A stretch of 64,000 bases of DNA, taken from contig NZ_LT907978.1 in the NCBI RefSeq assembly GCF_900209925.1, forward strand, positions 3,319,001-3,383,000, in the 5' to 3' direction. Source of the stretch: Anaerobutyricum hallii. Its GTDB lineage: Bacteria; Bacillota; Clostridia; Lachnospirales; Lachnospiraceae. The notes under the pieces were generated by a model. It did no database searches. It worked only from the letters and a program-made list of their open reading frames with translations, and was not told the DNA's origin. The translations under genes and the position numbers were made by a program. Each line of letters opens with the position of its first letter. Position 1 is the first letter of the stretch. This document shows positions 1,467-63,995 of this stretch, piece after piece.

Positions 1467-1581
1467 ATAAACGACTTTTTAATAATTAAACTGATTTTTT
1501 TCGCCATATTTATTTATATGTACTCATCAAGTCCTATATGACGGATTTTCTGAGACACATCTTGTGGCAATGGAGGGAAAT

Positions 1582-2964
1582 ATGTATACAATTGATTTTC
1601 AAAAGCCGATTCATGTTCATTTTATCGGTATCGGCGGTATCAGCATGAGTGGTCTTGCTGAAATTTTATTAAACAGACATTTTACAGTTACTGGTTCTGA
1701 TATGCAGGCATCTGATATGACAAAGCATCTTGAAGAGACAGGTGCAAAGGTTGTGATTGGACAGAAAGCAAAGAATATTACCGATGATATCGATCTTGTT
1801 GTTTATACTGCTGCCATTCACGAATCTAACGAAGAATTTGCTGCTGCAAAGAATAAAGGAATCCCTATGATGACCCGCGCAGCTCTCCTTGGACAGATCA
1901 TGGCAAACTTTGCGAAGTCTATCGCCGTTGCCGGAACACATGGAAAGACAACAACAACTTCTATGCTTACTCACATTCTTCTTCAGGCAGATACCGATCC
2001 TACGGTCAGTGTCGGAGGTATGTTAGACCGTATCGGTGGAAATATTCGTGTCGGCCATTCTGACCTCTTCCTTACGGAAGCATGTGAATATACGAACAGT
2101 TTCCTTGAATTTTATCCATTATATTCTATTATCTTAAATGTAGAAGAAGACCATATGGATTTCTTTAAGGATATTGAAGATATTAAGAATTCTTTCCATA
2201 AGTTCGCTTCTCAGACTGCAAAAGACGGACTTATCATTATTAACGGAGATATGGACCACACAGACTTCATCTTAAACGGTCTTAGCCAGAAGCACGTTAC
2301 TTTTGGTTTAAACCCTGACAATGATTACACTGCAGCAGATATTACATTTGATAAAGAGGGAAATGCTTCTTATAACCTTATCGCACATGGACAGGAAAAG
2401 GGCCGTATCGCTTTAAAAGTAAAAGGCCGCCACAATGTTATGAACTCTTTAGCTGCCATCGCATGTACAGAAGCAATCGGTCTTCCTTTCGATACGATCC
2501 GCAAAGGTCTTTTATCCTTTGGCGGCACACACCGTCGTTTTGAATACAAAGGTTCTCTTGGCGATGTAACTGTAATTGACGATTATGCACATCATCCAAC
2601 AGAAATCCGCGCTACTTTATCTGCTGCAAAGGATTATCCGCATGATGAACTCTGGGTTATCTTCCAGCCTCATACATACACCCGTACAAAGGCGTTTCTC
2701 CCTGAGTTTGCAAAGGCTTTAGAGCAGGCAGATCATGTGATTTTAGCTGATATTTATGCCGCAAGAGAAGTAGATACCGGAGAAGTTTCTTCTAGAGATG
2801 TTATGAAGCTTTTACAGGAAGATGGACAGGACGTACATTATTTCCCAAGCTTCGAAGAAATCAAAGATTTCGTAAAGGCTCACGTAAAAGGACATGACCT
2901 CCTGATTACGATGGGCGCAGGAAATGTCGTAGAAATCGGAGAGGAACTTCTGGCTGAAAAATAA
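1582..2964 (+). CDS. murC: UDP-N-acetylmuramate--L-alanine ligase
   Basis: Adds L-alanine to UDP-MurNAc, the first amino acid of the peptidoglycan stem peptide, in the cytoplasm. The N-terminal nucleotide-sugar domain begins with HFIGIGGISMSGLAEIL. The ATP loop GTHGKTTTT lies near residue 120, the Mur ligase motif TEACEYTNSFL near 170, and the ligase C-terminal domain carries TVIDDYAHHPTEI. The 460 residues are normal for MurC. The frame is open upstream to a GTG at 1564, but the ATG at 1582 has GGAGGG placed five bases before it, so I prefer that start. It is transcribed alone, ending in the structured element at 3001. Confidence 0.96.
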   Translation: MYTIDFQKPIHVHFIGIGGISMSGLAEILLNRHFTVTGSDMQASDMTKHLEETGAKVVIGQKAKNITDDIDLVVYTAAIHESNEEFAAAKNKGIPMMTRAALLGQIMANFAKSIAVAGTHGKTTTTSMLTHILLQADTDPTVSVGGMLDRIGGNIRVGHSDLFLTEACEYTNSFLEFYPLYSIILNVEEDHMDFFKDIEDIKNSFHKFASQTAKDGLIIINGDMDHTDFILNGLSQKHVTFGLNPDNDYTAADITFDKEGNASYNLIAHGQEKGRIALKVKGRHNVMNSLAAIACTEAIGLPFDTIRKGLLSFGGTHRRFEYKGSLGDVTVIDDYAHHPTEIRATLSAAKDYPHDELWVIFQPHTYTRTKAFLPEFAKALEQADHVILADIYAAREVDTGEVSSRDVMKLLQEDGQDVHYFPSFEEIKDFVKAHVKGHDLLITMGAGNVVEIGEELLAEK

Positions 2965-3000
2965 GTTCTAAACTATTAACAGATAAAGTAGATGTTTCCT

Positions 3001-3110
3001 AAAAAAGATACCCTATATCTATGGCTCTGTCACTGTGGGTTGAATGTTCATTTAAACGCTCGCATTCAATCCTCGTTCTAATGCCACAGAGATAGGGTAT
3101 CTTTTCTTTT
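3001..3110 (+). repeat. Large nested stem-loop after murC (divergent member of the CAGACGAA element family)
   Basis: AAAAGATACCCTAT at 3003-3016 pairs with ATAGGGTATCTTTT ending at 3105, and CTGTGG/CCACAG extends the stem. Inside, TTGAATG pairs with CATTCAA. The unpaired arms (GGCTCTGTCACTGTG on the left, TCGTTCTAATGCC on the right) resemble the inner core of the copies at 11.1, 11.6, 24.6, 54.3 and 63.8 kb. The right arm ends in T-rich sequence, so it should act as the murC terminator. It lacks the CAGACGAA entry motif. Confidence 0.6.
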
Positions 3111-3148
3111 TGGAAGCTTTCTCTGGCTCGATAGGTATCCAGAATAAG

Positions 3149-6936: not shown

Positions 6937-7175
6937 GAGCTGAATTGTAGTTGGTCTTCTAAAGAAAAAAAGAATTTTTATAAGTTTGATTTTGTTCCGT
7001 TGCGCTAAACATTCCATTCTGCCCAGAAAAACAGGAACTTGGGAAAAACGAGTCCCAAGTTCCTACGGTCAGAATTCCATAGCACAAAGTCACAAAATGC
7101 AATACCTATAAAAATTCTTTTTTTCTTTACCATAGTTTTCTTACAATTCCGCATATAATTTTGTTTCAGCGGCTG
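6937..7175 (-). repeat. Structured repeat B, copy 1 (inverted)
   Basis: Inverted copy of the repeat at 7615-7833. It contains an outer stem (AAAGAAAAAAAGAATTTTTA on the left pairing with its complement near 7110-7130). The inner hairpin has arms CAGGAACTTGGG and CCCAAGTTCCT around the loop AAAAACGAGT, and flanking TTGCGCTAAACATTCCATTCTG and ATTCCATAGC arms. It starts about 40 bases after the prs stop. Compared with copy 3, both stems differ in sequence but stay paired. Confidence 0.85.
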
Positions 7176-7612: not shown

Positions 7613-7835
7613 TGCTGAATTGTAAGAAAACTATGGTAAAGAAAAAAGAATGGTTATAAGTATTGCATTTTGTGCCTTTGCGCTGTGGAATTTTGACTCT
7701 GAAAACTTCGGACTCGTTTTTCCGAAGTTTTCGTTTTTTGAGGCAGAATGGAATGTTTAGCGCAACCAAACAAAATCAAACTTATAACCATTCTTTTTTC
7801 TCTAGAAGACCAACTACAATTCAGCTCAATATCTT
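7613..7835 (+). repeat. Structured repeat B, copy 3
   Basis: GAAAAAAGAATGGTTATAAG (near 7640-7660) pairs perfectly with its complement near 7780-7800, and GAATTGTA/TACAATTC closes the base. The inner hairpin arms are GAAAACTTCGG and CCGAAGTTTTC around the same ACTCGTTTTT loop as copies 1 and 2. It ends a few bases before the PBP stop codon. Relative to copy 1, both outer and inner stems carry compensatory differences. Confidence 0.85.
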
Positions 7836-10379: not shown

Positions 10380-11135
10380 GTGAACTTGAAAAAATTATCT
10401 GGATATCATCTGAAATTTATTGCTGTTATTTCCATGCTTATTGACCATATCGCTGTTGTTTTTCAAGCTTCCCTGTCTGAAAGTATCTACTTTATTTTAC
10501 GGGCAGCCGGCAGACTTTCCTTTCCACTCTTTTGTTTTCTGCTTGTTGAAGGCTTCTTTCACACAAGGAATAAAAAAAGATATCAGCAGCGATTGTTTAT
10601 TTTTGCTGTTTTATCTGAACTGCCTTATGATCTGGCATTCCGATATCTACCCGTTGACAGACCAGATTTTCTCGCACAGCTGCAGCATCCGCTTTCTGTT
10701 TTTTCAGCAGCCTTCCAACAGCAAAATGTACTATTTACTTTATTTTTAGGTTTTACTGCCATGCTCTTAATGGAAAGAAAACAGCCGTACGGCCAATATA
10801 GTATCTATAAAAATATCGACACCCTGATCCTTTTCTGCTGCCTTAGTGAAATTTTCCAGACAGACTGCGGAGCCGCCGGGATTCTGTGCATTTTTCTTTT
10901 TTACTCATCTTATAAGGAAAGAGAAAATAATACCGGACTTACAATAAAAGAAAGTCTTATAGACATCGCACCCACTGTGCTTCTAACTTATATCCCACCC
11001 TTTCCGGTACAGATATCTGCCCTCGCAGACAGCTTGCTTTTACGCTTATATAGCGGAGAAAAAGGGAAAAATCATAAATACTTCTTTTACCTCTTCTACC
11101 CCCTACATTTGGTGGTTTTGTATTTAGTCAAGTAG
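10380..11135 (+). CDS. TraX-family integral membrane protein
   Basis: 251 residues with about seven hydrophobic segments. The start (LSGYHLKFIAVISMLIDHIA) and the segment LRAAGRLSFPLFCFLLVEGF with the following HTRNKKRYQQRL match the TraX family (PF05857). This family is named after an F-plasmid pilin acetylase but occurs widely as chromosomal genes of unknown role in Clostridia; it is not evidence of a conjugative element here. Start is GTG at 10380, with GGAGA just upstream. CAGACGAA-type element sequence begins within the stop codon region at 11134. Confidence 0.75.
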   Translation: MNLKKLSGYHLKFIAVISMLIDHIAVVFQASLSESIYFILRAAGRLSFPLFCFLLVEGFFHTRNKKRYQQRLFIFAVLSELPYDLAFRYLPVDRPDFLAQLQHPLSVFSAAFQQQNVLFTLFLGFTAMLLMERKQPYGQYSIYKNIDTLILFCCLSEIFQTDCGAAGILCIFLFYSSYKERENNTGLTIKESLIDIAPTVLLTYIPPFPVQISALADSLLLRLYSGEKGKNHKYFFYLFYPLHLVVLYLVK

Positions 11136-11260
11136 ACGAAAAACGGAAAAAAATAATATAACAGCTGTTCTATCGTCGTGAATTTTAAGATGCTCATCCA
11201 CATCTTAAAATCCTCTCCCAAGCCACATCTGTTATATTATTTTTTTCCGTTTTTCTGACT
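11134..11260 (+). repeat. CAGACGAA structured element, copy C1
   Basis: AGACGAA overlaps the TraX stop. A 26-base arm (AAAAACGGAAAAAAATAATA + TAACAG) pairs perfectly with its complement ending at 11256. Inside, ATTTTAAGATG and CATCTTAAAAT form an apical hairpin with loop CTCATCCA. The left inner arm TATCGTCGTG and right inner arm CTCCCAAGCCACAT match the family core loosely. The T-rich right arm makes it a probable terminator for traX. Confidence 0.85.
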
Positions 11261-11289
11261 TTGATAAATACAAAATGAGAGGACCTGGG

Positions 11290-11385
11290 GATTCTTATTT
11301 TCTGTGTTTGGGCTTCAAAAGGAATGAATGCCAGTAGTATTTGAGAAAGAGATGGGGAAGGGGACGGAAGGTTGTGGCTTATTTC
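11290..11385 (+). repeat. Degenerate conserved tail of copy C1
   Basis: TTCTGTGTTTGGGCTTCAAA, then GGAATGAATGCCAGTAGTAT, then AGAAAGAGATGGGGAAGG. This matches, with changes, the tails that follow copies C2, C3 and C4 (GGCTCCAGAAGGAATGAAT ... AAAGAGAAGGGGGAGAAAT). Confidence 0.6.
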
Positions 11386-11454
11386 GATATAGCCTCCGGC
11401 AGGATTGCAAGTTTATCATTATATTGTCGCAATATATCATTTTCTTTTCTGGAC

Positions 11455-11668
11455 GATATACCTTCCGAGCAAGCAGTAGACTCCTGTCCTCTCCCCCTTC
11501 TCTCCCCAAAGCCTATTTTGTTCATTCCACGTGGAGCCAAAACACAGAAAAAAGAAACAATATCATATCCCAGATGCGGCTTCGGAGCGTGTTTAAGATG
11601 CGGATGAGCATCTTAAACACAGCGACTACAGAGCAGATGGGATATGATATTGTTTCTTTTTTCGTCTA
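11455..11668 (-). repeat. CAGACGAA structured element with tail, copy C2
   Basis: Read on the minus strand it starts AGACGAA six bases after the 850-residue gene's stop. A 25-base arm AAAAAAGAAACAATATCATA + TCCCA follows, then the core left arm TCTGCTCTGTAGTCGCTG, apical hairpin GTGTTTAAGATGC/GCATCTTAAACAC, core right arm GCTCCGAAGCCGCATC, the perfectly complementary outer arm and the 95-base tail reaching GCTTGCTCGGAAGG. Near-identical to C3 except for paired compensatory changes. C1 and C2 face each other between two convergent genes. Confidence 0.9.
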
Positions 11669-11673
11669 TTCCC

Positions 11674-16777: not shown

Positions 16778-16828
16778 TAAAAAGTCCAGTATCATACATA
16801 GAGTAAACAGAAAGTTAATAGGAGAAAT

Positions 16829-16878
16829 CAAAAAGGATATCCTATTGGATTTTTACATCTGCAATACGATATCCTTTT
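16829..16878 (-). terminator. Terminator after the adhesin gene
   Basis: AAAAGGATATC on one arm pairs with GATATCCTTTT on the other; on the minus strand the stem ends in CCTTTTTGA. It lies between the adhesin stop and the HAD gene start. Confidence 0.7.
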
Positions 16879-16940
16879 CGGTTTCTTCTGCTAATTTACA
16901 GTTTTGTCCGTCAAATCATTTCAAATTATTTCAAACTATT

Positions 16941-24526: not shown

Positions 24527-24740
24527 ATATCTTCCGAGCAAGCAGTAGTATTCTAATTTCTCCCCCTTATCTCTTTCCAAAGACTATTTTGCATTCATTC
24601 CTTCTGGAGCCAAAACGCAGAAAAAAGAAATAATATCATATCCCAGATGCGGCTTCGGAGCGTATTTAAGATGCGGATGAGCATCTTAAATACAGCGACT
24701 ACAGAGCAGATGGGATATGATATTATTTCTTTTTTCGTCT
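24527..24740 (-). repeat. CAGACGAA structured element with tail, copy C3
   Basis: Starts (minus strand) with AGACGAA 26 bases after the DivIVA-like gene's stop. The outer arms (24621-24645 and 24711-24735) are perfectly complementary over 25 bases. The apical hairpin is GTATTTAAGATGC/GCATCTTAAATAC, and the core arms are identical to C2. The tail runs through GGCTCCAGAAGGAATGAATG to the CTTGCTCGGAAGATAT end. Against C2, one outer-stem pair changes from C-G to T-A and one apical pair from G-C to A-T. Confidence 0.9.
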
Positions 24741-24765
24741 GTTTTCCTCTCAATGAATCAAATAG

Positions 24766-25674
24766 TTATCCCTGCATCTTCTCCATAAGGCGTGCTGTGT
24801 CTTCTGTAAGCTTCTTCAGGGAATTAACCATTGCTGTCTTCTGAGCTGCCAGCTCATCACACTGTTTCTTCTCTTCTTCTACTTTACGCAGGCTATCTTC
24901 ATGAATCTTCTTCGCCTCTTCAATCGCATTATCTTTATTCTCCTGGGCATCTTTTAAGAGTCTTTCTGCAGTCTTACGTGCTTCTCCGATAATATCTGCT
25001 GCATCCTGTCTTGCCTGCTCTCTCTCTCTTTCTGCCTGTTCTCTTGCTTCATCAAGAATAGCATTCTGTCTGCCTTCTAAATCAGAAAGCTGCTTGCAAA
25101 GTAAGTCTGCATTCTTCATGTATCTTTCGTATGCCTGATCTGTTGTTTCCGGTACTTTTGCCTCTTCAGCAGCGGTCTGGGCTTCTTCTGCTCTTGCAAG
25201 CGCTGCTGCTGTCTTTGCCTTCTCTGCCTTGATTTCTGCTTCTAATGCTTCAATCTTCTTCTGAGCTGCTGCTAACTGTGCCTTTGCCGCTTCAATCTCA
25301 TCCTGCGCTTCATCTGCACTTGTTACTGTCTCTGGTGTATCTGCTGTTTCATAAGCTGCTTCTGGTGCAGATTCTTCTGTAGCTTCTGCTCCTGTTTCCT
25401 GCTCTTCTTTGTCTTCTTCTGCGTCAACGATGTCTTCCTTTGTATCTTTTTCTAACTCTTCCATCGTCTTACCGGTTGCCGCTGCTGCTATTCCGAGAGC
25501 TGTCTTGCTCTCTTTCTTTAATTCTTCGATTTCTTTTTCTTTTGCTAAGATGATCGCTTCTGCCTCATCACAGATCTTATCCAGCTGAATATCGACTTCA
25601 TCTTTATCGTAACCAAACATTGATGTTTTAAATGTCAGTTCTTCTACATAGGTTAATAATTCCTGCATATTCAT
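24766..25674 (-). CDS. DivIVA-like coiled-coil protein
   Basis: 302 residues. The N-terminal segment KTSMFGYDKDEVDIQLDKI is a DivIVA membrane/curvature-binding type start. The rest is largely charged coiled coil in two blocks (about 35-75 and 120-300), separated by a Glu/Thr/Ala-rich linker, ending MVNSLKKLTEDTARLMEKMQ. It probably acts at division sites or poles in cell-wall organisation. GAGGGG lies upstream of the ATG. It stands alone, followed by element C3. Confidence 0.75.
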   Translation of the reverse strand: MNMQELLTYVEELTFKTSMFGYDKDEVDIQLDKICDEAEAIILAKEKEIEELKKESKTALGIAAAATGKTMEELEKDTKEDIVDAEEDKEEQETGAEATEESAPEAAYETADTPETVTSADEAQDEIEAAKAQLAAAQKKIEALEAEIKAEKAKTAAALARAEEAQTAAEEAKVPETTDQAYERYMKNADLLCKQLSDLEGRQNAILDEAREQAEREREQARQDAADIIGEARKTAERLLKDAQENKDNAIEEAKKIHEDSLRKVEEEKKQCDELAAQKTAMVNSLKKLTEDTARLMEKMQG

Positions 25675-37790: not shown

Positions 37791-37852
37791 TAAAAAATGA
37801 CCTACCCCAGATGCTTAGAAGCTGCATCCGGTATAGGTCATTTTTCATCTGT
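37791..37852. terminator. Bidirectional terminator between mecA and the DUF1858 gene
   Basis: AAAAAATGACCTA pairs with TAGGTCATTTTT; inside, GATGC/GCATC form a second stem. T-runs occur on both strands, fitting two convergent genes. Confidence 0.8.
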
Positions 37853-42116: not shown

Positions 42117-42164
42117 GCTATAATTATCTTAATCATTCATAATACTTACATAGTCTCTTTCTTC

Positions 42165-42306
42165 TTCTCACATCCGGACTGTACCGTCGGCTCCGGAATC
42201 ACACCGGATCATGCTGTCGCTCGCGGGCTTACGCTTCTTTCTAATATCAAAACACAAATCAAAAACGCTTACCGCCGGTCGGGAATTACACCCTGCCCTG
42301 AAGAAT
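42165..42306 (-). promoter_or_regulatory. FMN riboswitch (RFN element)
   Basis: The minus strand shows the conserved RFN pieces in order: TCTTCAGGGCAGGGTG, AATTCCCGACCGGCGGTAA, then GCCCGCGAGCG, GATCCGGTGTGATTCCGGAG, CCGACGGTACAGTCCGGATG. It lies between the rib promoter and ribD and should shut the operon off when FMN is abundant. Confidence 0.96.
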
Positions 42307-42322
42307 ATTTATTTCCATGGGT

Positions 42323-48205: not shown

Positions 48206-48336
48206 AAGACAGCGAGAATTGAGATTATAATATCTGTTCCTCATCGTTGAAATCCGTAGATCATGACTCCACTATGTTTTGGCAACATTTCAAATACTCG
48301 TCACAGATATTATAATCTCAATTCCCGCCTGTCTTC
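48206..48336. repeat. Large nested stem-loop between rplI and dnaB (possible family member)
   Basis: GAATTGAGATTATAATATCT + GT (48215) pairs perfectly over 22 bases with its complement ending near 48325; AAGACAG/CTGTCTT extends the base. Inside, TTGAAAT/ATTTCAA form a second stem. Inner arm TCTGTTCCTCATCGTTG resembles the conserved TCTGCTCTGTAGTCGCTG arm. CGCCTGTCTTCT is repeated 25 bases further right. Confidence 0.5.
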
Positions 48337-54259: not shown

Positions 54260-54283
54260 GCTGTTTGTTTTTGTGTGAACAGA

Positions 54284-54415
54284 CAGACGAAACCCCGAAA
54301 AAATAATATTACAATTTGCTCTATTTCGCTGCGGAGAAAATGCTTAGTCGCATTTTTCCTTGCTCCGAAGCCGCAAATTGTAATATTATTTTTTCGGGGT
54401 TTCTGTTTGTTGAGA
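54284..54415 (+). repeat. CAGACGAA structured element, copy C5
   Basis: CAGACGA starts 25 bases after the small membrane protein's stop. The outer arms of 31 bases are perfectly complementary (left arm begins GAAACCCCGAAAAAATAATA, right arm ends TTTTTTCGGGGTTTC). The inner core TATTTCGCTGCGGAG and GCTCCGAAGCC is conserved, with apical AAAATGC/GCATTTT around TTAGTC. Terminator-like T-rich right arm. It ends about 100 bases before the converging TA partner gene. Confidence 0.9.
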
Positions 54416-55964: not shown

Positions 55965-56026
55965 TTGATACAACGCTACTCAATCCATCCTCTAATTTTT
56001 CACCTGATTTACGGGATTGGAATACA

Positions 56027-56150
56027 CAGAGCCTCCGAATTCTATCATATGTAAAAATGTGCCTTAGAGCAAGTTCAAGCTGCGGTCGAGCAGCTTGGAC
56101 GCAGTGATACAAAACATTTTTGCATATGATAGAATTCGGAGGCTCGTCTG
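56027..56150 (-). repeat. CAGACGAA structured element, copy C6
   Basis: Begins CAGACGA five bases after the XRE-cupin stop (minus strand). Outer arms pair over 32 bases with one G-T pair (GAGCCTCCGAATTCTATCAT at the base). Inner apical hairpin GTCCAAGCTGC/GCAGCTTGAAC around TCGACC. The core arms ATCACTGCG and GCTCTAAGGC are diverged. Confidence 0.85.
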
Positions 56151-56154
56151 TTCA

Positions 56155-56718
56155 TCATCTTAACCCCGTATAATCAAGAAAAAAACAAGTAAAACTGACT
56201 GTTTCTCTTCCTTCGTTCCGATAAACATGCATCTGATCTGTTTCAAATTTATAAACCTGTTCTTTATTGATTATCTGTATATGCCCATGACATTCTATCG
56301 TAAGTACACCTTCTGTTACTGTAATGTACTCTCTTGTTTTTTCGCCATGACTCCCACTCATATAGACCCCGCCGGGTTCTATATCAATTCGATATACTTC
56401 TACGGAATGAGAATCTTCATAAGGAAAACATGTCCAGACTTTATATTGCCCTTCCAGTTCTTTTGTAGGAAAAATTTCTTTTGGACTTACAAGGCAAAAA
56501 TCTTCTCTCGGCGCATCAATGAGTGTCTGAAATTCTATGCGGAGTCCGCTTGTAATTTTCCCAAGCACACCAAGAGAGGGATTGGCTGTACCTTTTTCAA
56601 TCTGAGCAAGCATACTTTTGCTGACTCCGGTCTGTTCCGCAACCTCACCAAGGCTCATCCCCTTTGACAGGCGAATCTGTTTTAAATTAACCGCTACATT
56701 ATATGACAAATAATCCAT
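56155..56718 (-). CDS. XRE-cupin transcriptional regulator, PuuR-like
   Basis: 187 residues. Residues 5-62 form an HTH (LKQIRLSKGMSLGEVAEQTG, SMLAQIEKGTANPSLGVLGK); residues 105-185 form a small cupin domain (EYITVTEGVLTIECHGH, METDQ-like KFETDQMHVYRNEG). This architecture is that of PuuR and related regulators of polyamine or amino acid use. It heads a cluster of permease and aminotransferase genes. ATG at 56718 has AAGGAGG upstream. Confidence 0.85.
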   Translation of the reverse strand: MDYLSYNVAVNLKQIRLSKGMSLGEVAEQTGVSKSMLAQIEKGTANPSLGVLGKITSGLRIEFQTLIDAPREDFCLVSPKEIFPTKELEGQYKVWTCFPYEDSHSVEVYRIDIEPGGVYMSGSHGEKTREYITVTEGVLTIECHGHIQIINKEQVYKFETDQMHVYRNEGRETVSFTCFFLDYTGLR

Positions 56719-56763
56719 AAAAATCCTCCTTGTGTGATTTAATTTATCGGGTGAGTAGAGCAA

Positions 56764-56850
56764 CAGACGAACCATGAGAATGAAATATTCTTTATCTGTG
56801 ACTTTAGTCGCTGCGAGAAAAAGACTTCTATGAAAAGCCTCTCATGAAAA
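56764..56850 (+). repeat. Truncated CAGACGAA element (left half only), copy C8
   Basis: CAGACGAACCATGAGAATGA, then the core left arm TCTGTGACTTTAGTCGCTGC. The complementary outer right arm is missing; only TCTCATG (56840-56846) can pair with CATGAGA. A decayed copy in the gap upstream of the regulator. The remaining bases to 56982 hold nothing I recognise. Confidence 0.65.
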
Positions 56851-56982
56851 GTTATTGATTTTGACTCCGTTGTAAAAAACGCAAAGTCGCCCTTTAATAA
56901 ATCGCTAATTAATGTCACCATAATATCAAAATAACCAGAAGCCTACAACTCAAATCCTCACAAAACTTCTATTTATCAAAGA

Positions 56983-57104
56983 CAGAAGGTCCTGCATTTA
57001 TATTTTAGCAGATGCGTCTTTAGAGCGAGCAAAAATGCTAACCAGGCATTTTCGCACAGCGAAACAGAGCAGATGCTAAAATATAAATGCAGGACCTTCG
57101 TCTA
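56983..57104 (-). repeat. CAGACGAA structured element, copy C7
   Basis: AGACGAAGG begins five bases after the permease stop (minus strand). Outer arms AAGGTCCTGCATTTATATTT + TAGCA and their exact complement; core arms TCTGCTCTGTTTCGCTGTG and CGCTCTAAAGACGCATC; apical AAAATGC/GCATTTT. Close to C2/C3 in the core, entirely different in the outer stem. Confidence 0.9.
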
Positions 57105-57108
57105 TTCA

Positions 57109-63650: not shown

Positions 63651-63787
63651 CTTGTTTCTTATTTATTTTTATTGCTTATTTCTTTCATGGCATTACTATA
63701 ACACGATTAAATTATATTACCATCGTCACGATACACAAAATTATTGTGCAACATTCATAATTGCTATTTCATTCATTTAGAGGAAAA

Positions 63788-63995
63788 CAGACGAAACGGG
63801 AAAAGGCTAATGATTGCATCTGTAAAGATAGTCGCGGCGAGAAGAATGCTTATTCGCATCCTTCTCTGGCTCCGACATTACATCTGCAATCATTAGCCTT
63901 TTTCCGTTTCTGTGTTTTGGCTCCAGAAGAAATGAATTCAATAGTCTTTGTTAGAAAGAAGGGGGGAGAAATCAGAAGACTACTGAATTAATTCC
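63788..63995 (+). repeat. CAGACGAA structured element with tail, copy C4
   Basis: CAGACGAAACGGG start; outer arms of 26 bases pair with one mismatch; core TAGTCGCGGCGAG and GGCTCCGAC; apical GAGAAGAATGC/GCATCCTTCTC around TTATTC. It is followed by the conserved tail (TGTGTTTTGGCTCCAGAAG, AAATGAATTCAATAGTCTTT, GGGGGGAGAAATCAGAAGAC). No same-strand gene precedes it, unlike the other copies. Confidence 0.85.

What the first reader, a model, noticed from the sequence alone, without database searches (positions are those of the whole stretch)
11134..11668. A dispersed family of about nine large stem-loop elements with conserved core but copy-specific outer stems
Copies at 3.0, 11.1, 11.6, 24.6, 54.3, 56.1, 56.8 (half), 57.0 and 63.9 kb share a nested layout: CAGACGAA, a 25-32 bp outer stem, left core like TCTGCTCTGTAGTCGCTG, an apical stem ending ATGC-loop-GCAT, right core like CGCTCCGAAGCCGCATC, the outer stem complement and TTTCTG. 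Outer stems of most copies share no sequence yet each is almost perfectly self-complementary. Ordinary MITEs keep their sequence; ordinary terminators have no conserved core. About one copy per 7 kb is very dense. I know no described family with this plan.
Basis: partly seen in the sequence, partly recalled or inferred. Interest (0 to 1): 0.85.

Follow-up and report, generated by a model that had tools for sequence, protein, structure and literature searches.

The report
Giant variable-stem hairpins after genes
Two related gut bacteria carry many long DNA hairpins just after genes; their arms differ from copy to copy yet stay mirror images, most likely because one arm is recopied from the other during DNA synthesis.

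Summary
Seven of the nine listed copies are full-length; the 3.0-kb copy is decayed and the 56.8-kb half was not recovered by a covariance model. In 864 kb of this genome I counted 92 elements (about 365 per genome, extrapolated), in at least five core families. Of 145 genomes searched, only this one and Anaerobutyricum hallii DSM 3353 had hits; those searches have limited sensitivity. About 60% start near a same-strand stop codon. Outer-stem covariation is extreme, yet G-U mismatches (28) do not exceed A-C (35); terminator-like hairpins of the same genomes give 18 to 5. That points to DNA-level copying between arms, not RNA selection. Copies also show likely template-switch products: two cores overwritten by the reverse complement of the other side, one core inverted relative to its feet, and paired changes at orthologous sites. 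In 58 in-register F1 copies, 100 of 101 paired stem variants fall in one 9-bp patch (32 types), yet 48 of 58 stems are perfect. At some orthologous sites the hairpin was exchanged while the flanks stayed. Best reading: a new family of giant REP-like palindromes, mended by template switching. What moves or swaps them is unknown.

The parts
11132..11259 (+). full element (F1-related core); the upstream gene's stop codon (TAG, 11133-11135) lies inside its 5' foot
11543..11669 (-). full element, subfamily F1, context A; forms a convergent pair with 11132-11259 between two convergent genes
24616..24742 (-). full element, subfamily F1, context A, downstream of the gene 24766-25674 (-)
24717..24725 (-). 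hypervariable patch, 5' arm (stem pairs 11-19, counted from 0) of the 24.6-kb copy
   Evidence: position mapped from the 127-nt register
24631..24639 (-). hypervariable patch, 3' arm of the 24.6-kb copy
24695..24710 (-). left conserved core of the 24.6-kb copy
24646..24660 (-). right conserved core of the 24.6-kb copy
24582..24615 (-). tail of the module (TTTTGGCTCCAGAAGGAATGAATGC...), partly complementary to the lead on the other side
24743..24765 (-). lead of the module (CTATTTGATTCATTGAGAGGAAA), between the stop codon and the 5' foot
54283..54407 (+). full element (core type F4); the A. hallii orthologous slot has a different, coreless hairpin between the same flanks
56025..56151 (-). full element (core type F4), foot 3 nt after the stop codon of 56155-56775 (-)
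56763..56830 (+). left half of an element only (foot, arm, left core); end approximate
   Evidence: seen by eye; not reported by the model at E<=1
56981..57105 (-). full element; its stem has no second copy in this genome at <=3 mismatches; the A. hallii slot has another core and stem between conserved flanks
63787..63914 (+). full element (TGTAAAGATAGTCGCGG core type)
2988..3121 (+). degenerate element downstream of gene 1564-2964 (+)
   Evidence: 48 bits
26601..26661 (-). short coreless hairpin with the same feet; the A. hallii slot has a full element

Best explanation
A dispersed family of large REP-like palindromic DNA elements that live mostly at gene 3' ends. SHOWN: (1) feet and core are conserved, while outer-stem sequence is nearly free across families but Watson-Crick complementary within each copy; (2) the complementarity carries no RNA (G-U) signature; (3) single copies have the form expected from DNA polymerase switching between the two arms: one side's core present as the reverse complement of the other side's, core inverted between the feet, and paired double substitutions at orthologous sites. 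INFERRED: a mutation in one arm is repeatedly copied to, or erased by, the other arm when the nascent strand folds back or switches strand at the hairpin, so stems drift but stay perfect. Feet and core, which differ between the two sides, are kept because something (a protein acting on the folded single strand, or a transcript-level role) recognises them. The family spread as non-autonomous mobile DNA, tolerated mainly just after stop codons. Whether hairpins are exchanged by ectopic conversion, re-insertion or a dedicated enzyme is not known.
For: Covariation over 128 elements: 96.8% of cells paired, outer helix 98.7%. Outer helix: 3251 WC, 28 G-U, 35 A-C, 7 other. Control: terminator-like hairpins with exactly one interior non-WC pair in the same two genomes, 18 G-U and 5 A-C of 30; Fisher p=0.007. 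58 F1 copies with the foot in register: 101 compensated and 23 non-WC stem cells (7 G-U, 11 A-C, 5 other); 48 of 58 have 26/26 WC stems although 32 patch types occur; 31 core sites show 0-4 changes except one with 13. Seven orthologous hairpins compared with A. hallii: 8 compensated, 15 uncompensated and 10 gapped pairs; my hand estimate of compensated changes by chance is about 1. Core overwritten: L057:2102, a 53-bp perfect palindrome, and the L165 slot near 1448-1503 in the other direction. Core inverted between the feet: L160:11218, against 112 in the usual relation. Both feet alike: L159:8518. Template switching is reported to give arm homogenisation and spacer inversion (PMC8604942, passages) and multibase compensatory changes (PMC8794818, abstract). 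A same-strand stop codon at the 5' foot: 50 of 84 own and 39 of 67 A. hallii elements; opposite-strand stop at the 3' foot: 1 of 84 and 7 of 67; random positions 211 of 3000.
Against: Plain template switching homogenises arms. It does not by itself explain why 100 of 101 paired variants of F1 fall in one 9-bp stem patch while 17 other pairs have 1, or why one pair inside that patch never varies, or why a hairpin with another core replaces the old one between conserved flanks (54.3 and 57.0 kb). The apical loop also varies (up to 20 of 58), so the stem patch is not the only variable part. The apical stem tolerates mismatches (perfect in 38 of 72; A-C 83 against G-U 27 over all families), so homogenisation is uneven. 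In situ, uncompensated changes outnumber compensated ones, and 4 of the 8 compensated come from one pair whose own copy has lost part of its core. The terminator control is small and I did not remove possible element arms from it. No strain-level or experimental data.
Confidence: 0.6

Rival explanations
1. A functional RNA element (terminator, 3'-end protector or protein-binding hairpin) in hundreds of 3' UTRs; stems covary because selection demands pairing in the transcript.
For: Sense orientation right after stop codons; a conserved internal loop with free stems is the usual sign of a structured RNA; F1 3' arms end in a T-rich stretch (TTTCTTTTTTCTG).
Against: G-U is not enriched over A-C (28 against 35), unlike terminator-like hairpins of the same genomes (18 against 5). 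Within recent F1 copies a stem patch varies far more than the unpaired core. Elements found in two species only. Core inversion and a core-spanning 53-bp palindrome look like DNA-rearrangement products.
Confidence: 0.2
2. A dedicated ssDNA or hairpin recombination system (HUH transposase or integron-like recombinase) folds, moves and swaps these hairpins; the perfect arms are made when one strand is integrated and copied.
For: Exchange between ACAGACGAA and TTTCTGT with both flanks kept at 54.3 and 57.0 kb. Conserved feet with a 3-nt bulge. One F1 copy is 98% identical between the genomes, where orthologous flanks are mostly 70-98% identical. Neighbours within 800 bp face each other in 39 of 46 cases.
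Against: Y1 (HUH) transposases occur in 11 of 13 genomes searched, including species without found elements. Of 20 Y1 loci that were fetched (3 of this genome's 7 matches), R2 elements were present in only 2 and lay about 1 kb from the gene. No tyrosine recombinase was tested. The 57.0-kb stem has no second copy in this genome and only one 3-mismatch site in A. hallii, not at a listed element, so no donor was found.
Confidence: 0.15
3. Ordinary MITE insertions into pre-existing gene-end palindromes (terminators), so that the outer stem is simply the old terminator of each gene.
For: Explains copy-specific yet self-complementary outer stems and location after stop codons. The outermost lead/tail arms are also complementary (mean score 9.5 against 6.75 permuted, largest of 2000 permutations 7.3).
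Against: The feet lie outside the variable stem and are conserved, and F1 outer and inner stem parts are shared by unrelated sites, so the stem belongs to the element. Some coreless forms look like deletion derivatives of full ones (L073:2019-2066 against A. hallii L156:12163; L058:14762).
Confidence: 0.05

Closest known systems
CGTC-tagged REP elements (Di Nocera et al. 2013, PMC3733652: abstract, passages, and the sections on CGTC families and on dimers seen)
   Same: Palindromic, many copies, a CGTC motif at one end of the hairpin (here TTTCGTCTGT read on the other strand), mostly downstream of genes, frequent opposite-orientation dimers, several families per genome, no dedicated transposase known.
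   Different: Those have 8-9 bp stems and 4-5 nt loops; here outer stems of about 26 bp, a conserved internal loop and an apical stem (about 127 nt). The paper's main text has 0 occurrences of 'Clostridi' or 'Firmicutes'.
Quasipalindrome template-switch correction (PMC8794818 abstract; PMC8604942 passages)
   Same: Arm homogenisation, spacer inversion and multibase compensated changes.
   Different: In what I saw it is shown for coding genes and RNA genes; here it would act across a dispersed repeat family of hundreds of copies.
Integron attC sites (recalled, no call)
   Same: Sense orientation right after a gene's stop codon; imperfect palindrome with variable stems and conserved ends.
   Different: Feet are ACAGACG/CTGT, not the recalled R-box motifs; where compared, the genes keep their order between the two species and are not cassettes.

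Membership tests
CGTC-tagged REP | unpaired CGTC-type tag at one end of the palindrome | tested here: inconclusive
   A CGTC is there on the reverse strand, but only about three of its bases are bulged and the flanking bases can pair with the other foot
CGTC-tagged REP | stem of 8-9 bp | tested here: not met
   outer stem about 26 bp plus an apical stem of 11-14 bp
CGTC-tagged REP | loop of 4-5 nt | tested here: not met
   52-57 nt between the outer arms of seven window copies (at 11.1 kb that call runs the arms through the core, leaving 8 nt)
CGTC-tagged REP | downstream of coding regions and in opposite-orientation dimers | tested here: met
RAYT/IS200-IS605-mobilised REP | elements flank a Y1 transposase gene | tested here: not met
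   20 fetched Y1 loci scanned; elements in 2, about 1 kb away; 4 of this genome's 7 Y1 matches were not fetched
MITE | terminal inverted repeats and target-site duplication | tested here: inconclusive
   lead and tail are complementary; I could read no clean empty site and no duplication
Structured RNA family under RNA selection | G-U wobble tolerated over A-C | tested here: not met
   28 against 35; control 18 against 5
Any Rfam 15 family | match at the gathering score | tested here: not met
   only an FMN riboswitch elsewhere in the window; other copies were not scanned
Integron attC | integrase-binding boxes and an IntI-type recombinase | not tested
   motif recalled only; no search for integrases

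The most novel reading that the evidence does not exclude
The hypervariable, nearly always self-complementary stem patch and the clean exchange of whole hairpins between fixed feet reflect a dedicated hairpin-diversifying or hairpin-swapping system: gene 3' ends carry slots into which a recombinase or transposase places interchangeable folded single-strand cassettes, giving each gene its own barcode-like palindrome.
Probability: 0.13. Interest if true: 0.88.

Novelty: new variant of a known kind. Interest (0 to 1): 0.66.

Why it matters
Covariation is commonly read as proof of a functional RNA stem. Here is a natural family of hundreds of copies in which near-perfect covariation shows the marks of DNA-level arm copying, a warning for RNA-family discovery. 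It is also a dense natural record for measuring template switching in bacteria. It adds a giant REP-like class in a human gut butyrate producer (lifestyle recalled), and it raises the testable question of what keeps the core and swaps hairpins at fixed gene ends.

Tried and rejected
Rfam: no family in the window. Y1 transposases as the driver: not linked at the loci fetched. Second copy of the 57.0-kb stem: none in this genome; one 3-mismatch site in A. hallii, not at a listed element. Composite transposon bounded by two hairpins: several convergent pairs lie between convergent genes with each foot next to its own gene's stop codon, and in the pairs 500-4000 bp apart I saw no common inner gene. 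More distant relatives as empty sites: orthologues 50-62% or, for the other gene, up to 82% identical in protein; I printed loci on the wrong strand and took nothing from it. Phages and plasmids: no match for one 181-base query. Four viral contigs hit by a loose core pattern had no R2 element, so I count them as chance. Literature: searches gave no description of this family in their listings; the library is open-access PMC only.

Selections and limits: the 92 own elements are best-strand hits that I picked from 150 matches; they include partial and decayed ones. The 70 A. hallii elements were picked, and their stretches were partly chosen because they held hits, so that density is biased upward. 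The 17 slot pairs and the seven were chosen by me from the matches. Of 79 F1 candidates, 72 passed a loose register test (there 164 compensated, 59 non-WC, 54 of 72 perfect, and 40 types of the stretch printed); on checking I found that 14 of these 72 do not have the foot in register (many carry an extra base pair per arm), so the report rests on the 58 that do. Family labels F1-F5 are mine (regular expressions; 17 of 128 unassigned). In searches of many genomes only 11-30 first-look candidates per genome were scored, and the 299-genome sample held one genome per genus and not A. hallii.

Full report
WHAT IS THERE. The window is bases 3319001-3383000 of a 3.516-Mb single-contig genome. Seven full elements of 125-128 nt lie in it, plus a decayed one (3.0 kb), a left half (56.8 kb, seen by eye only) and a coreless short one (26.6 kb). 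Each full element reads: 5' foot ACAGACGA (variants ATAG, GTAG), outer arm of about 26 nt, left core, apical hairpin, right core, outer arm complement, 3' foot TCTG. The two feet can pair except for a 3-nt bulge on the 5' side. Outside the feet a short lead and tail are again partly complementary: mean alignment score 9.5 in 154 elements of both species, against 6.75 when tails are permuted, the largest of 2000 permutations being 7.3 (the permutation also breaks family membership, so part of this is family-wide).

HOW MANY AND WHERE. A covariance model built from 13 copies was run over the window and 40 evenly spaced 20-kb stretches. At E<=0.01 it gave 150 matches on both strands, which I reduced to 92 elements by best strand. 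Without the window that is 83 in 800 kb, or about 365 per genome if the sample is fair; partial and decayed copies are included. A genome-wide search scored its 150 best candidates, all at 117 bits or more. This model hit only this genome and one other of the same genus among 116 genomes; a broader model built from 128 elements hit the same two among 145 and only this one among 299 genomes of the family, a sample with one genome per genus. These wide searches score few candidates per genome. An independent count of hairpins with 20-bp arms and 35-90 nt gaps agrees: 85 in 864 kb here, 66 in 410 kb of the second genome (stretches partly chosen for hits), 1 in 180 kb of gene-centred loci from other species of the genus. 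The second genome's contig lengths equal those of Anaerobutyricum hallii DSM 3353. The window's own species is then a sister species, probably A. soehngenii (inference). One 181-base query had no match in plasmid or phage records.

GENE ENDS. Using open frames of at least 80 codons, a same-strand stop codon ends between 45 nt before and 12 nt after the start of the 5' foot in 50 of 84 own elements and 39 of 67 A. hallii elements. The mirror test at the 3' foot gives 1 of 84 and 7 of 67; random positions, coding ones included, give 211 of 3000. The commonest distance in the own genome is 21 nt (10 of 50), about the length of the lead, so the lead often begins directly after the stop codon; in other copies the stop codon lies in the lead or foot. 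The other 34 own elements have no such gene; part of them may follow short genes missed by my caller. Neighbouring elements within 800 bp face each other in 39 of 46 cases of both genomes.

FAMILIES. By core sequence there are at least five groups. Of the 128 aligned elements, 39 of 43 F1 come from this genome and 25 of 28 F3 from A. hallii; 17 were not assigned. Within F1, F2, F3 and F5 the core columns mostly have low entropy while the outer stem is much more variable.

COVARIATION, AND WHAT KIND. On 128 elements 96.8% of 5325 cells form standard pairs, with 1617 both-side changes; shuffles give 63.6% and 428, and sliding the partners by one to three columns gives 41-53%. The alignment was fitted to the structure, which raises the percentage but hardly the difference between mismatch types. 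In the outer helix the non-Watson-Crick cells are 28 G-U, 35 A-C and 7 others; in the apical helix 27 G-U, 83 A-C and a few others. Selection on an RNA stem should spare G-U and remove A-C; a DNA-level process sees the two as the same mismatch on opposite strands. As a control, terminator-like hairpins of the same two genomes with exactly one interior non-Watson-Crick pair gave 18 G-U and 5 A-C among 30 (Fisher p=0.007). The control is small and may contain arms of the elements.

THE HYPERVARIABLE PATCH. Among 58 F1 copies with the foot in register, stem pairs 11-19 carry 30, 6, 11, 0, 19, 14, 8, 9 and 3 compensated variants, 100 in all; the other 17 pairs carry 1. Non-Watson-Crick cells are 23 (7 G-U, 11 A-C, 5 other). 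Of 31 unpaired core sites 30 show 0-4 changes and one shows 13. The apical loop also varies, up to 20 of 58 at one site. There are 32 patch types, and 13 of 21 tested site pairs show all four combinations, so the variation is not a few frozen lineages. Still, 48 of 58 outer stems are perfect over 26 pairs (all). Over the looser set of 72 the apical stem is perfect in only 38. Why the patch is hypervariable is unexplained.

TRACES OF ARM-TO-ARM COPYING. (a) L057:2102 is a 53-bp perfect palindrome with a 6-nt loop, reading as if its left core had become the reverse complement of its right core. (b) In the A. hallii slot on L165 near 1448-1503 the opposite is seen: both sides carry the left-type core. 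(c) At L160:11218 (A. hallii) the core is inverted relative to the feet; 112 other hairpins have foot and core in the usual relation. (d) At L159:8518 both feet carry the ACG sequence (two others flagged as 'both' are chance matches of my foot pattern or unclear). (e) At seven orthologous slots with the same element family, 8 pair changes are compensated and 15 are not (10 more are gapped); from the divergence of each hairpin I estimate by hand about 1 compensated change by chance. Four of the eight come from one pair. Arm homogenisation and spacer inversion are the reported products of polymerase template switching between inverted repeats (PMC8604942, passages), and multibase compensatory change has been attributed to it (PMC8794818, abstract).

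SLOTS OUTLIVE HAIRPINS. I laid out 17 own/A. hallii slot pairs chosen from the flank matches. Five have the same hairpin, one has F1 in both with a different patch, nine have different elements, two have lost the hairpin in A. hallii. At 54.3 kb and 57.0 kb both flanks are conserved up to or nearly up to the feet while what lies between is different. The 57.0-kb stem has no second copy in this genome at up to 3 mismatches; A. hallii has one 3-mismatch site that is not at a listed element. Two facing hairpins appear fused by deletion in A. hallii (L165:5620), and a coreless form can arise by internal deletion (L073:2019-2066 against L156:12163). So hairpins are lost, shortened and replaced at fixed gene ends. 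Ectopic conversion, re-insertion at the same site, or a dedicated enzyme would all fit; I could not separate them.

HOW IT MOST LIKELY WORKS. The stems are kept perfect mainly by DNA template switching at a very long quasipalindrome, which lets their sequence drift. The feet and core are kept by recognition of some kind. The family spread as non-autonomous mobile DNA and survives mostly just after stop codons. The maintenance step has direct support from the sequences; the recognition, mobility and insertion steps are inference.

AGAINST IT. Uncompensated changes outnumber compensated ones in situ. The variation is confined to one part of the F1 stem. Sense orientation at gene ends and conserved internal loops also fit an RNA role, which no transcript data here can exclude.

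Noticed in passing
G000:C1:1480000-1812000: None of the 150 listed genome-wide R1 matches falls in this third of a megabase (about 14 expected by even spread), and the four 20-kb stretches sampled there (L083, L064, L084, L065) had none either: a possible desert of the element.
   Followed up: partly
window 6960-7129 and 7637-7804: A second pair of related hairpins (TAAAGAAAAAARGAAT...TTATAAGT, 118 nt between arms); similar text (AAAAAAGAATTGTTATAAGTTTG) occurs in an A. hallii stretch (L153), so it may be another dispersed palindromic family.
   Followed up: no
window 48212-48328, 16805-16904, 37793-37845: Three further long inverted repeats with ACAG..CTGT-like ends by eye but without the core; possibly decayed or coreless relatives. 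The 37.8-kb one scores 17 bits with R1.
   Followed up: partly
L153 (A. hallii C62) against own L031, L033, L035, L053, L060, L077, L079, L085: A stretch of about 350 bp at 82-86% identity recurs a few hundred bp from elements in the own genome, pointing to a longer repeat associated with them.
   Followed up: no
G017:C62:8339-8463 against window 11545-11669: An F1 copy is 98% identical between the two genomes although orthologous flanks are mostly 70-98% identical; recent transfer or very recent spread.
   Followed up: partly
window 42158-42309: FMN riboswitch on the minus strand (Rfam RF00050, 108 bits).
   Followed up: no
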